Positions 36,287-40,888 of a DNA stretch of 42,422 nucleotides are shown here, in pieces. Position numbers and translations under genes: made by a program. Location of the stretch: positions 1-42,422 of the forward strand of contig JAUXOC010000041.1 of NCBI GenBank assembly GCA_030682495.1. Direction: 5' to 3'. The notes under the pieces are model-generated. The model had not been told where the DNA came from and did not search any database. It worked only from the letters and a program-made list of their open reading frames with translations. Position 1 is the first letter of the stretch. Each line of letters opens with the position of its first letter. Origin of the DNA: Alphaproteobacteria bacterium (GTDB lineage Bacteria; Pseudomonadota; Alphaproteobacteria; Micavibrionales; UBA2020).

Positions 36287-37672
36287 ATGACCAACCAGCC
36301 GCCCGCCATTCTGGAGCTTATCGGCAATACGCCGCTTGTCGAGATCACCCGCCTCGATACCGGCCCCTGCCGCCTGTTCGCCAAGCTGGAATCGCAAAAC
36401 CCCGGCGGGTCGATCAAGGACCGCATCGCGCGCCAGATGATCGACGTGGCTGAAAAAGAAGGCAAGCTGAAACCGGGCGGCACGATCATTGAAGCCACGG
36501 CGGGCAATACCGGCCTTGGCCTCACGCTCATCGGCGGGCTGAAGGGCTACAAAGTCATTCTCGTCGTACCCGACAAAATGTCGCGCGAGAAAATTTTCCA
36601 TTGCAAAGCCATGGGCGCGGATGTGCGCGTGGCGCGCAGCGATGTTGTGCGCGGCAACCCCGAATATTATCAGGACGTGGCAGCACGTATCGCGCAGGAA
36701 ACCGGCGGTTTCTACGTCAACCAATTCGCCAACCCCGCCAACGTGGCCGCGCATTTTGAATATACCGGCCCCGAAATTTTTACGCAGATGGAAGGCGATG
36801 TGGATGCTGTCGTCTGCGGCGTCGGCTCCGGCGGAACGCTGACCGGCATCGGCAATTACATGAAAAAACATAGCCCGAAGACGGAAATGATACTGGCCGA
36901 TCCGGTCGGCTCTATCCTTGCGCCGCTGGTCAACGAGGGCAAGACGGTCGAGCCGGGCTCCTGGCTGGTCGAAGGCATCGGTGAAGATTTTATCCCCGAT
37001 ATTCTCGATATGTCTCTGTGCAAAAAAGCCTATGCGATTTCGGACGAGGAAAGCCTCGCGACCGCGCGTGAACTGCTGCTGAAAGAAGGCATTCTTGCTG
37101 GCCCATCGTCGGGCACACTGGCCGCCGCCGCCATCAAATACTGCCGCGCGCAAAAAGAGCCGAAACGCGTCGTCACGCTGATCTGCGACCGCGGCGATAA
37201 ATACCTGTCCAAAACCTTCAGCGATTTCTGGCTGAGCGAGCAGGGCTTTACGCTGCGCAAGCCCACGGGCACGATCGAAGACCTCATCATGCGCCGTCAC
37301 GACAGCGGCGATACGGTTTTTGTCCGTGCGACCGACCCTTTGAAAACCGCCTATAAACGCATGCGTTTCGCCGATGTGTCGCAGCTGCCGGTGCTGGATG
37401 AAGCGGGTAAACGTCTGGTCGGTGTTGTCGATGAAAAAACGCTCCTTAACCGCATGACACTGGGTGACAAGGGCGCGCTGATGTCCGGTATCGTTTCCGA
37501 TGTGATGCGTGAAGCCGCCCCCGTGCTGCCCAAGGAAACACCGATTGAAACCGCCGCGCCGCTTTTGCAGCAGGGCGGATCGATCATGGTCGTTGATAAC
37601 GACAAATTTATCGGCGTTGTCACCCGCGTTGATATGCTCAACCATTTTTATCTGAAAGGTCAGGTCGCCTGA
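36287..37672 (+). CDS. Cystathionine beta-synthase with two C-terminal CBS domains, 461 aa
   Basis: This PLP enzyme condenses homocysteine (or an activated serine) with serine to form cystathionine. The fold-type II catalytic domain (about 1-320) has the PLP lysine K44 in NPGGSIKDRIARQM, EATAGNTG (69-76) and the phosphate loop GVGSGGT. A tandem CBS (Bateman) module (about 330-455) follows, as in eukaryotic-type CBS enzymes, and may bind an adenosyl ligand; simple cysteine synthases lack it. AGAG precedes the ATG. It overlaps the next gene by one base (TGATG), so the two steps of reverse transsulfuration are coupled. O-acetylserine use, with cysE adjacent, cannot be excluded. Confidence 0.92.
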   Translation: MTNQPPAILELIGNTPLVEITRLDTGPCRLFAKLESQNPGGSIKDRIARQMIDVAEKEGKLKPGGTIIEATAGNTGLGLTLIGGLKGYKVILVVPDKMSREKIFHCKAMGADVRVARSDVVRGNPEYYQDVAARIAQETGGFYVNQFANPANVAAHFEYTGPEIFTQMEGDVDAVVCGVGSGGTLTGIGNYMKKHSPKTEMILADPVGSILAPLVNEGKTVEPGSWLVEGIGEDFIPDILDMSLCKKAYAISDEESLATARELLLKEGILAGPSSGTLAAAAIKYCRAQKEPKRVVTLICDRGDKYLSKTFSDFWLSEQGFTLRKPTGTIEDLIMRRHDSGDTVFVRATDPLKTAYKRMRFADVSQLPVLDEAGKRLVGVVDEKTLLNRMTLGDKGALMSGIVSDVMREAAPVLPKETPIETAAPLLQQGGSIMVVDNDKFIGVVTRVDMLNHFYLKGQVA

Positions 37673-38841
37673 TGTCTGCTTCCCGTAAAAACCGCGATTT
37701 CTCCACCCGCTGCATTCATGGCGGGCAGCAGCATGACCCGACAACGGGCGCTGTCAATGTGCCGATCTATGCGACATCGACCTATGCACAAAGCGCACCG
37801 GGCGAGCATAAAGGCTTTGTCTATGCGCGCGGCCACAACCCGACGCGCCATGCCTTTGAACGTGCTATGGCCGACCTTGAAGACGGCAGCGCGGCTTTTG
37901 CCTTCGGCTCCGGTCTGGCTGCGATGTGCGCGGTGCTAGACGTACTGCCTGTGGGGTCGCACATGATTGCCTCCGACGATTTGTATGGCGGCAGCTTCCG
38001 TTTGTTTGAACGTGTGCGCAAGGATACGACGGGTCTGGAAGTGTCCTACATCGACATGACCGATGCGGAATCGGTGCGCGCCGCCATTCGCCCGAACACG
38101 AAAATGGTCTGGATCGAAACGCCGACCAACCCGATGCTGAAGCTGACCGATATCGCCGCCGTTGCCAAGATTGCCCGCGAAAAAGCTTTGCTGACGGTCG
38201 TGGATAATACGTTTGCGACGCCGTGGAACCAGCGTCCGATCACGATGGGTGTCGATGTTGTTGTGCATAGCGCGACGAAATATATCGGCGGGCATTCGGA
38301 TATCATCGGCGGCGTGGCGATTGTCGGTGATAATCCCGAACTCGCCGACCGCATGAAATTTATCCAGAACGCGACAGGCGGCATTTTAGGCCCGTTTGAC
38401 AGCTTCCTTGCCCTGCGCGGTGTCAAGACGCTGGATGTACGCATGGAACGCCACAGCAAGTCGGCGGAGAAAATCGCCGCCTGGCTCGATAAACATCCGA
38501 AGGTCGAAAAGGTATGGTATCCCGGCCTTGCCAGCCACCCGCAGCACGAATTGGCCAAGCGCCAGATGCGCGGTTTCGGCGGTATGGTAACGGCAGAGGT
38601 CAAGGGCGACCTTGCGGCATCCCGCCGCATGCTGTCGGCTTGCAAAATCTTTACGCTGGCCGAAAGCCTTGGCGGCGTCGAAAGCCTGATCGAACATCCG
38701 GCCATCATGACCCATGCTTCGGTACCGAAAGAACAGCGCGACGCACTCGGCATTTCCGACGGGCTCATCCGCCTGTCGGTCGGCATCGAAAGCGTGGAAG
38801 ACCTCATCGCCGATCTCGACGAAGCCTTGGCGCAAATATAA
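37672..38841 (+). CDS. Cystathionine gamma-lyase / gamma-synthase family enzyme, 389 aa
   Basis: This Cys/Met-metabolism PLP enzyme has the Schiff-base K203 in HSATKYIGGHSDIIGG, the YARGHNPTR motif (Tyr and Arg of PLP binding), FGSGLAAM and the WIETPTNPMLK loop. Sequence alone does not separate the lyase from the synthase, but coupling to a cystathionine beta-synthase (TGATG overlap) favours gamma-lyase, giving cysteine from cystathionine. A start at 37672 with no spacer suits translational reinitiation. It ends 13 bases from the convergent repeat-protein gene, with no clear terminator between. Confidence 0.92.
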   Translation: MSASRKNRDFSTRCIHGGQQHDPTTGAVNVPIYATSTYAQSAPGEHKGFVYARGHNPTRHAFERAMADLEDGSAAFAFGSGLAAMCAVLDVLPVGSHMIASDDLYGGSFRLFERVRKDTTGLEVSYIDMTDAESVRAAIRPNTKMVWIETPTNPMLKLTDIAAVAKIAREKALLTVVDNTFATPWNQRPITMGVDVVVHSATKYIGGHSDIIGGVAIVGDNPELADRMKFIQNATGGILGPFDSFLALRGVKTLDVRMERHSKSAEKIAAWLDKHPKVEKVWYPGLASHPQHELAKRQMRGFGGMVTAEVKGDLAASRRMLSACKIFTLAESLGGVESLIEHPAIMTHASVPKEQRDALGISDGLIRLSVGIESVEDLIADLDEALAQI

Positions 38842-38854
38842 CGCTGAAAATGTA

Positions 38855-39715
38855 TCAGGGGCCTTTGGGCGTGCGGCGGCGAATGTTGGCTGCGGGGCGA
38901 AGCACGCCGATATCCTGCGCGGTTTCGGCCGCCTCAACGCGGGGTTCCTCGTCCTTCGCACGGGCGGGCTTCAAGGCGTCCGGAATCTGTTCCCAGCTTG
39001 TATAAACGCCCCAGTCGGAATAAAGAACTTTGAAACGCTCCGGTGCATCTTCAAGCGAGGTCAGGGGGTTTTCATGGCATCTGAATTCTTTGCCGACCGA
39101 CAAGGGGCCGCCTTTTAAACCGGCCAATTGATTTCTTTCGCACCAGAAACTGCCGCCGACGGCGCGCGGCGCGCCTTGCAGGGATATCAGCTTGTTATCG
39201 TAAGCCACAAAGTCACCGCCGACAGTTGACGGTGCGCCGCGCAAGTCGGCCAGCTGGTTTGCGTAGCATTCAAAATCGCCGCCGACGCTTGTGGGCGCGC
39301 CCTGCAACGACACAAGGTTATTATACTTACACCAGAAACCACCGCCAACCGTAGCAGGCCCGCCAAACAAAGTGGTCAGCTGGTTCTGCGCGCAGGAGAA
39401 ATAGCCGCCAACGGTGGAGGGCGCTCCTTGCAGGCTGGTCAGATGGTTGTTGTTACATGAAAAGTTTCCGCCCACCGAAGCAGGCGCGCCCTGCAAACTG
39501 GTCAGCTCGTTATTGTCGCAAATAAAATTCCCCTGAACGACAACACGGCTGAGGTCGGGCAACTGCGTGAGCCCTTTGTTCCAGAGGTTGATATCACCTG
39601 CCACGAAAATCGTGCCGTCACTTCTTTTTGTGTAATCAATATCCCACGCCCGCAGCGCCTGTTCGGCGGCAGAGAGCGGGGTTTGCGGCGAATTGTGATT
39701 TGCGGGTGCGGTCAT
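38855..39715 (-). CDS. Leucine-rich-repeat-like protein of 21-residue repeats, 286 aa
   Basis: After a ~45-residue N-terminus come seven clear repeats of 21 residues at residues 71-217, with degenerate ones before (49-70) and after (218-238). The repeat reads L-T-S-L-Q-G-A-P-x-x-V-G-G-x-F-x-C-x-x-N-x, with Leu, Gly-Gly, Phe and mostly Cys at fixed places. Similar repeats of the LTSLxGAPxxVGG type are known in phage and bacterial proteins of unknown function, forming a solenoid. No signal peptide is seen. The C-terminus (239-286) is Pro/Glu/Arg-rich. Codon choice includes more A/T-ending codons than neighbours, a hint of acquisition. The partner is unknown. Confidence 0.85.
   Translation of the reverse strand: MTAPANHNSPQTPLSAAEQALRAWDIDYTKRSDGTIFVAGDINLWNKGLTQLPDLSRVVVQGNFICDNNELTSLQGAPASVGGNFSCNNNHLTSLQGAPSTVGGYFSCAQNQLTTLFGGPATVGGGFWCKYNNLVSLQGAPTSVGGDFECYANQLADLRGAPSTVGGDFVAYDNKLISLQGAPRAVGGSFWCERNQLAGLKGGPLSVGKEFRCHENPLTSLEDAPERFKVLYSDWGVYTSWEQIPDALKPARAKDEEPRVEAAETAQDIGVLRPAANIRRRTPKGP
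39065..39505 (-). repeat. In-gene 63-base repeat array (seven units)
   Basis: The protein repeats at residues 71-217 are encoded by seven in-frame units of 63 bases. The strongest DNA conservation is in the GGCGCGCC-TGCA segment coding QGAP and the CCGCC segment coding VGG. Repeats of this kind can expand or contract by recombination. Confidence 0.75.
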
Positions 39716-39888
39716 AAGAAAGAGCCTGAAGAGAATTTGGATTCGAAAAAGAGCTCAATCATTATGTCAATAAATAGATGAAAGTCAACCGGCGGCGTAT
39801 GGTGTATCTTTTTATCTCTTTTCAATGGCTTGGCTTGTTTCTGCCGCGGACGCGGCGTGGCGCGAGAAGCTTGCGGTCACCTGCCACA

Positions 39889-39917
39889 TTCATGGTAAGG
39901 TACGCGCTCCTTATAAT
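39889..39917 (+). promoter_or_regulatory. Putative promoter for glk
   Basis: TATAAT (39912-39917) is a perfect -10; TTCATG (39889-39894) 17 bases upstream is a weak -35. It lies 30 bases before the glk ATG. The rest of the 231-base gap to the divergent repeat-protein gene shows nothing else I can identify. Confidence 0.4.
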
Positions 39918-39946
39918 TTCAGGCAAAAGACGGAGAGACAGAGCGT

Positions 39947-40888
39947 ATGTCACGGCTGATTGCGGATATCGGGGCGACCAACGCCCGTTTTGCCATTGCG
40001 AACGATGATGGCATCCATCACATCGATGTTTTGCCCTGCGATGATTTCCCCACGCTGGCCGATGCCGCCAAGGCTTATCTGTCGCGCATCGGCGGAGAGA
40101 AGCCGCAAACCGGCGCCTTCGCCGTCGCCATCCCGCTCAGCGGCGCCGATCAGGTGGCCATGACCAACCACGGCTGGACTTTTTCCATCTCCGGTACGCG
40201 CGACGATATCGGCCTTGCCAAGCTGGATGTCATCAACGATTTTACCGCGCTCGCGCTCGGCATTCCGCATCTGACGGAAAATGATTTTTACACGATGGGC
40301 GGCGGTGCGCCCGTCAAAGGCGCGCCCGTTGGCATCATCGGCCCCGGCACAGGTCTGGGCGTCGGCGCGGTTGTCTTCGGCAAAAGCGGGGAGCCGATAC
40401 CGGTCACAACCGAAGGCGGCCACGTCACCATGCCGGCATCAAGCGAGCGCGAATTCCGCCTGTTTGAATGGCTCAAACAAACCAAATACCATCATATCTC
40501 GGCCGAGCGGGTGATTTCCGGCAAGGGGCTCGTCAATATCTATCACGGGCTTTGCGGTCTCGACGGACTTGATCTGCCGGAAAAAACACCGGCGGAGATT
40601 ACCGAAGCCGCGCTCGCGCGCAGCTGCCCTGTCTGCGTGGAGACGCTGGATTTGTTCTGTCATTTTCTGGGCGTTGCGGCGGGCAACCTCGCGCTCACCT
40701 ATGGCGCTTTTGGCGGCGTCTATATTGCGGGCGGCATCGTGCCGCGGCTCGGCAGTTATTTTGCGGCCTCGCGCTTTATGCAGAGCTTCCTCGAAAAAGG
40801 CCGCTTCAAAGACTACCTCGCCCCCGTCCCCGTGCGCGTCATCACCCACCCCTATCCGGGGCTGGAGGGGCTGAAGTATCTGGATTGA
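39947..40888 (+). CDS. glk: Glucokinase
   Basis: Glk phosphorylates glucose to glucose-6-phosphate with ATP. The 313-residue protein has the N-terminal phosphate loop ADIGATNARFA, the catalytic Asp in VINDFTALALGI, the ATP-binding IGPGTGLGVGAV and the TEGGHVTM motif, then GGVYIAGGIVPRL near the C-terminus, as in the bacterial Glk family rather than ROK kinases. GGAGA precedes the ATG. It is convergent with a GH13 alpha-glucosidase, which would release its substrate, but the two are not in one operon. A strong terminator separates them. Confidence 0.94.
   Translation: MSRLIADIGATNARFAIANDDGIHHIDVLPCDDFPTLADAAKAYLSRIGGEKPQTGAFAVAIPLSGADQVAMTNHGWTFSISGTRDDIGLAKLDVINDFTALALGIPHLTENDFYTMGGGAPVKGAPVGIIGPGTGLGVGAVVFGKSGEPIPVTTEGGHVTMPASSEREFRLFEWLKQTKYHHISAERVISGKGLVNIYHGLCGLDGLDLPEKTPAEITEAALARSCPVCVETLDLFCHFLGVAAGNLALTYGAFGGVYIAGGIVPRLGSYFAASRFMQSFLEKGRFKDYLAPVPVRVITHPYPGLEGLKYLD

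What the first reader, a model, noticed from the sequence alone, without database searches (positions are those of the whole stretch)
38855..39715. Solenoid of 21-residue LTSLQGAP..VGG.F.C..N repeats
Seven regular repeats plus two degenerate ends form most of the protein. Cys at a fixed place in nearly every repeat could create a Cys ladder, unusual in a protein with no signal peptide. Repeats of this type are familiar from phage and scattered bacterial proteins but have no assigned function. The 63-base DNA units make copy number potentially variable, and codon use hints at transfer.
Basis: partly seen in the sequence, partly recalled or inferred. Interest (0 to 1): 0.5.

Follow-up and report, generated by a model that had tools for sequence, protein, structure and literature searches.

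The report
Mobile leucine-rich-repeat protein with tail motif
A bacterial protein built from seven copies of a 21-residue leucine-rich repeat, of a kind that is also abundant in phages, has been inserted between two metabolic genes; its closest bacterial relatives end in a short tail motif that dozens of unrelated proteins share, which may be an undescribed sorting signal.

Summary
In detail: 38855-39715 on the minus strand encodes 286 aa with seven regular 21-residue repeats (71-217) and two degenerate ends; Cys recurs in 7 of 8 places. The repeat is a leucine-rich repeat (LRR) of the IpaH/SspH/YopM type (AlphaFold model pLDDT 86; Z 17.6 to IpaH2.5), with Cys at an inward strand position, so the Cys ladder is buried rather than exotic. 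The gene is a single-gene, opposite-strand insertion between a cystathionine-lyase gene and glucokinase, adjacent in relatives. Its DNA units are too diverged (48-68%) for slippage. Relatives are common in phages, as tandem paralog arrays, and one related genome has 33 matching stretches. New here: the bacterial paralogs end in a conserved tail (about xTVLxxPLxVxRPLxFRK) that unrelated proteins (ankyrin, MORN-like, unknown) of the same genomes also carry at their C-termini; it is absent from 190 of 191 genomes sampled across the class and from a reversed-profile control. This looks like a sorting or docking signal; its machinery was not found (no VirB4, T6SS sheath or encapsulin). The window protein keeps only a weak version (36 of 5000 shuffles score as well). 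Binding partner and destination unknown.

The parts
38855..39715 (-). LRR protein gene, 286 aa
39506..39670 (-). N-terminal cap (residues 16-70): helix, then ...DYTKRSDGTIFVAGDINLWNKGLTQLPDLSRVVVQGNFICDNNE; same cap in bacterial paralogs and in several phage homologs
39065..39505 (-). seven 21-residue LRR units (residues 71-217)
38966..39064 (-). degenerate eighth unit and C-cap (residues 218-250), conserved in bacterial relatives
38858..38965 (-). disordered linker and C-terminal tail (residues 251-286); the last 24 residues are a weak version of the tail motif of relatives
   Evidence: (pLDDT under 50 for most)
39761..39788 (-). promoter-like TTGACT-16-CATAAT upstream of the gene (10 of 12 consensus positions)
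   Evidence: consensus match only
38842..39946 (.). inserted stretch between the lyase gene and glucokinase; in the congener G001 these genes are about 26 bases apart
37672..38841 (+). left flank: cystathionine gamma-lyase-like gene (name recalled from sequence, not searched)
39947..40888 (+). right flank: glucokinase-like gene (name recalled, not searched)

Best explanation
The gene encodes a leucine-rich-repeat recognition protein of a mobile family shared by phages and an alphaproteobacterial lineage, acquired as a single gene. Shown or strongly supported: the LRR fold (by prediction), the N- and C-caps, the insertion between two otherwise adjacent genes, the amplified paralogs in relatives, the phage relatives. 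Inferred: the concave face, where residues next to the fixed F.C..N positions vary from repeat to repeat, binds a protein or other ligand; in the relatives the flexible C-terminal tail is a sorting or docking signal that delivers a set of otherwise unrelated proteins (LRR, ankyrin, MORN-like, others) to one place or export route. The window protein is probably a member of this set with a divergent tail.
For: Fold: model pLDDT 86.1; Foldseek top hits are IpaH/SspH LRR domains, E from 2.0e-4; VIA-align Z 17.6, rmsd 3.5 over 211 residues to IpaH2.5 LRR 7ya8_B; phmmer SspH2 1.2e-9, YopM 3e-7. Insertion: lyase and glucokinase adjacent without the gene in G001, G005, G006 and no homolog in congeners G001 and G002. 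Family: matches in 15 of 55 related genomes, 33 stretches in G006; 400 of 477 pattern-matched viral stretches encode relatives. Tail: profile of 19 paralog tails gives 71 matches in G006, 58 in G014, 11 in G005 at E<=10, and 24, 8 and 3 at E<=0.001, of which 9, 5 and 2 are not training rows (my count of its listing); reversed-profile control 2, 6, 1, none at E<=0.001; 1 of 191 genomes of the class at E<=0.001. Twelve of 13 non-training matches whose loci I opened end within 6 residues of a stop codon; the thirteenth (L202) was not resolved.
Against: The window protein's own tail was not found in G000 by either tail profile at E<=10; it scores 5.1 bits, reached by 36 of 5000 shuffles. No export machinery was identified: no VirB4 match in G000, G006, G014, no T6SS sheath in 8 of 8 genomes, contractile sheath only in G005, no encapsulin in 8 of 8. 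Pfam has no LRR match for this protein. Ligand binding is inferred from fold and variability only.
Confidence: 0.6

Rival explanations
1. Cytoplasmic LRR protein with an intracellular partner; the tail is a docking peptide for a common cytosolic scaffold or chaperone and nothing is exported.
For: No signal peptide or membrane segment is apparent by eye (no predictor was run); secretion machineries tested were absent in G000, G006 and G014; free Cys in the core suits a reducing compartment.
Against: Many unrelated tail-bearing proteins, several with eukaryote-like repeats (ankyrin), are more typical of an effector set than of one scaffold's clients (general knowledge).
Confidence: 0.35
2. Phage-derived cargo gene: the LRR gene came from a phage, where tandem arrays of such genes act as counter-defence or host-interaction binders, and here it is a neutral or domesticated passenger.
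For: Vibrio phages carry 52-53% identical homologs; viral contigs carry tandem paralogs with the same N-cap; one lies next to a baseplate-like gene.
Against: The C-cap (SDxGxFxSWxxxPxxL) is shared with bacterial paralogs and the viral loci opened have other C-termini, so the nearest source is probably another bacterium of the family; no phage gene is apparent beside the insertion.
Confidence: 0.25
3. NEL-type ubiquitin-ligase effector like IpaH or SspH that has lost its catalytic domain.
For: Closest solved folds are IpaH/SspH LRR domains.
Against: None of 13 scanned members matches a NEL model in Pfam at E<=0.1; similarity is confined to the LRR.
Confidence: 0.04

Closest known systems
IpaH/SspH/YopM-type bacterial LRR domains
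   Same: Repeat of 20-21 residues with L..L..P..L..L.V..N layout (consensus recalled), N-terminal helical cap, same predicted solenoid (Z up to 17.6)
   Different: Cys in place of the Val of LxV; GG before the strand; no NEL ligase domain; T3SS context not tested
PHROG 21719 and 7816 (phage proteins, function unknown)
   Same: Same repeat; matches E 2.8e-11 and 7.8e-4
   Different: Profiles of 554 and 739 positions; C-terminal parts of the phage proteins opened differ
Internalin J and other Cys-bearing LRR proteins
   Same: 21-residue LRRs with Cys at a strand position (recalled); phmmer 3e-8, NCBIfam internalin_J 2.2e-7, under its cut-off
   Different: Internalins are secreted and wall-anchored with a signal peptide (recalled)
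Encapsulin cargo-loading peptides and VirB/D4 T4SS C-terminal signals
   Same: Short C-terminal hydrophobic/basic signals shared by unrelated proteins (recalled)
   Different: Encapsulin gene absent in 8 of 8 genomes; VirB4 found in only 1 of 12

Membership tests
Leucine-rich repeat superfamily | 20-30 residue repeats with an LxxLxLxxN-type segment | tested here: met
   V.GG.F.C..N.L in seven units; register equals LxxLxVxxNxL of IpaH
Leucine-rich repeat superfamily | curved solenoid with a strand per repeat on the concave face | tested here: met
   AlphaFold model and structural matches; prediction only
Leucine-rich repeat superfamily | recognised by curated LRR sequence models | tested here: inconclusive
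   Pfam: no LRR model for P0001 at E<=10; LRR_4 in 5 of 13 relatives, best 1.1e-5
NEL-type E3 ligase effectors (IpaH, SspH, SlrP) | C-terminal NEL catalytic domain | tested here: not met
   Protein ends about 36 residues after the C-cap in disorder; no Pfam match
PHROG 21719 phage LRR family | profile match | tested here: met
   E 2.8e-11, residues 39-179
VirB/D4 type IV secretion effectors | host encodes VirB4 | tested here: not met
   PF03135 absent in G000, G006, G014; present in G005 only of 12
Encapsulin cargo | host encodes encapsulin shell | tested here: not met
   PF04454 in 0 of 8 genomes, control rings in 3 of 14
T6SS effectors | host encodes T6SS sheath VipB/TssC | tested here: not met
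   PF05943 in 0 of 8 genomes
Tail-bearing protein set defined here | C-terminal xTVLxxPLxVxRPLxFRK-like motif | tested here: inconclusive
   P0001 tail 5.1 bits, best of 27 window C-termini, 36 of 5000 shuffles as high; not found by genome search at E<=10

The most novel reading that the evidence does not exclude
An alphaproteobacterial family uses an undescribed short C-terminal sorting signal to send a large, diversifying set of repeat proteins (LRR, ankyrin, MORN-like and unknown) to one destination, possibly out of the cell through an export machine not yet recognised; the LRR members form a gene pool shared with phages.
Probability: 0.3. Interest if true: 0.75.

Novelty: new variant of a known kind. 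Interest (0 to 1): 0.5.

Why it matters
The LRR itself is a new member of a known fold, but the tail turns it into a handle: a C-terminal motif on unrelated proteins, dense in related genomes and almost absent from the rest of the class, can be tagged, deleted and used as bait. If it is a targeting signal it defines an effector or cargo repertoire in an uncultured lineage and points to an unknown receptor. The phage link also makes the function of abundant phage LRR arrays testable.

Tried and rejected
Recent repeat-number change in the window gene: rejected. Disulfide or metal Cys ladder: not supported; Cys occupies the inward position of the strand, though no distances were measured. Codon use as proof of transfer: too weak. 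Terminal repeats or recombination sites at the insertion edges: not tested systematically. VirB/D4, T6SS, contractile injection and encapsulin as partner of the tail: not found in G000, G006 and G014; T1SS, T2SS, T3SS, Dot/Icm not tested. Defence-system profiles: no match for P0001 at E<=0.1. Literature: seven searches gave only listings and none about this repeat or tail; no paper was opened, and the library lacks most subscription journals and all preprints, so this is no evidence of absence from print. Scans with P0001 alone found nothing. A shared upstream element in G006 was followed only partly.

Full report
Observation. The ORF at 38855-39715 lies on the minus strand and encodes 286 residues. 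Seven units of exactly 21 residues start at 71, 92, 113, 134, 155, 176 and 197, flanked by degenerate units; lag-21 identity is 0.47 against at most 0.175 for the best lag in 2000 shuffles. Cys recurs at 66, 87, 108, 129, 150, 192 and 213 (Ala at 171). The DNA units share only 48-68% and TRF lists no array.

Fold. Given an alignment of 20 sequences (the window protein and 19 stretches from related-loci loci), AlphaFold2 gives pLDDT 86.1, with ten-residue blocks from 21 to 220 at 91-99 and the last 27 residues under 50. PDB matches are IpaH and SspH LRR domains (Foldseek E 2.0e-4 for IpaH7.8; VIA-align Z 17.6, rmsd 3.5, 211 residues for IpaH2.5); human SDS22 (Z 17.4) and SHOC2 (Z 16.4) are close behind, so the fold is LRR and the subclass rests on repeat length and sequence (phmmer SspH2 1.2e-9; NCBIfam SspH2 3.9e-12 but far under its cut-off). 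In register, LTSLxxAPxxVGGxFxCxxN equals LTxLPxLPxxLxxLxVxxN of IpaH (recalled consensus): F and C are the two inward residues of the strand. The residue between them (S, S, W, E, V, W, R) and the two after Cys vary from unit to unit, as on ligand-binding LRR faces; binding is an inference.

Transfer. In G001 (same genus) the upstream lyase gene stops about 26 bases before glucokinase; the two genes are also adjacent in G005 and G006. G002's contig ends just upstream of glucokinase, where its last bases continue as in G001. In the window they are 1105 bases apart and hold the LRR gene in opposite orientation. No homolog was found in G001 (79% complete) or G002 (93% complete), and only one copy exists in G000. 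Codon use is mildly atypical. So this is a single-gene gain or, less likely, repeated loss.

Family. Of 55 genomes searched (G000 included), 15 have matches: G006 33 stretches, G030 16, G014 15. Thirteen members align along an N-cap (AExxLxxWGxxYxxxxDGTIxVPGxLDLSxKxLTxLPDLSxVxVxGxFxC), a variable number of repeats and a C-cap (xSDxGxFxSW). In viral contigs 477 stretches matched a pattern and 400 encode relatives; 73 loci were kept. I opened 6 of 73: L127, L090, L093, L097 and L132 have two to six such genes in tandem, L114 one; four of the six (L090, L093, L114, L127) carry a DGSIDVDGDV-like N-cap. The viral label is that of the collection. Annotated phages with a match: 10 of 50,697 records, best a Vibrio phage at 52.9%. 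Homologs also occur in MAGs labelled Paludibacteraceae, Chlorobiaceae and Aminicenantes, where prophage or binning errors are possible.

The tail. In G006, G014 and G005 many LRR paralogs end, after a linker, in a conserved segment such as ATVLQSPLAVRPPLSFRK; some paralogs lack it (e.g. P0005 and L047). A profile of 19 tails was searched in eight genomes at E<=10: G006 71, G014 58, G005 11, G000 4, G001 3, G003 3, G002 1, G013 1. At E<=0.001, by my count of the listing, G006 24, G014 8, G005 3, the others 0; leaving out training rows, 9, 5 and 2. The same tails written backwards gave 2, 6, 1 and 2 in G006, G014, G005 and G000, none at E<=0.001. In 191 genomes of the class (G000 included) only 1 has a match at E<=0.001. 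I opened the loci of 13 non-training matches: in 12 the match ends within 6 residues of the stop codon, one (L202) was not resolved. These include ankyrin proteins (L204, L200 by eye, and L175 of the window's own genome), MORN-like proteins (L192, L193; naming by eye), a fragment with an AAA_2 match that carries an LRR-like N-cap (L192:668-1282) and unknown proteins (P0009, L203, L205, L208, L183). So the tail travels independently of the LRR. Selection caveat: I chose which matches to open, mostly strong ones.

The window protein. Its last 24 residues (AETAQDIGVLRPAANIRRRTPKGP) resemble two tails of its own genome (L183: TVTVLRPLTVHKRPKP; DIDILPPINIRKRGPSS), but neither profile found it at E<=10. 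With a model of 30 tails it scores 5.1 bits, the best of 27 window C-termini, and 36 of 5000 shuffles do as well; leave-one-out scores of the 30 tails run from 7.7 to 37.2. Suggestive, not shown.

Machinery. VirB4 is absent from G000, G006 and G014 (found in G005 only, of 12), the T6SS sheath from 8 of 8, encapsulin from 8 of 8; a contractile sheath occurs only in G005. T1SS, T3SS and Dot/Icm were not tested.

Verdict. An ordinary LRR fold in an interesting, phage-shared, amplifying family. Function most likely ligand binding; destination possibly set by a C-terminal signal that is best seen in the relatives and that none of my searches of the held literature turned up (listings only).

Noticed in passing
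L183:640-1572 and 1649-2443; L175:961-1578 (the window's own genome): Tail-bearing proteins of the window's genome: two neighbouring related proteins of unknown family and an ankyrin-repeat protein.
   Followed up: partly
L031 near 5839, L032 near 8079, L170:2334-2367, L171:3985-4018 (G006): A shared 34-base upstream element occurs 4 times in G006, twice upstream of LRR genes and twice upstream of unrelated small genes; no match in G000 and G014.
   Followed up: partly
L067:4867-6792, L068:6133-7773, L069:5315-7231: LRR modules fused behind a larger conserved domain (GW.SC ... AAYL motif) in three genomes.
   Followed up: no
L054, L055, L057 (G030): LRR paralogs of another family of the order share a different basic C-terminus (KIADFRRFA..R).
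   Followed up: no
L192:668-1282 (G006): The LRR family's N-cap is joined to an AAA_2-like fragment and ends in the tail motif, suggesting that cap and tail recombine between genes.
   Followed up: no
L097:4919-6852: In a viral contig two LRR genes follow directly on a baseplate-hub-like gene (naming by eye).
   Followed up: no
L051:4708-5610 (G014): An ORF that starts as an LRR protein and continues into ankyrin-like repeats and a tail-like C-terminus.
   Followed up: no
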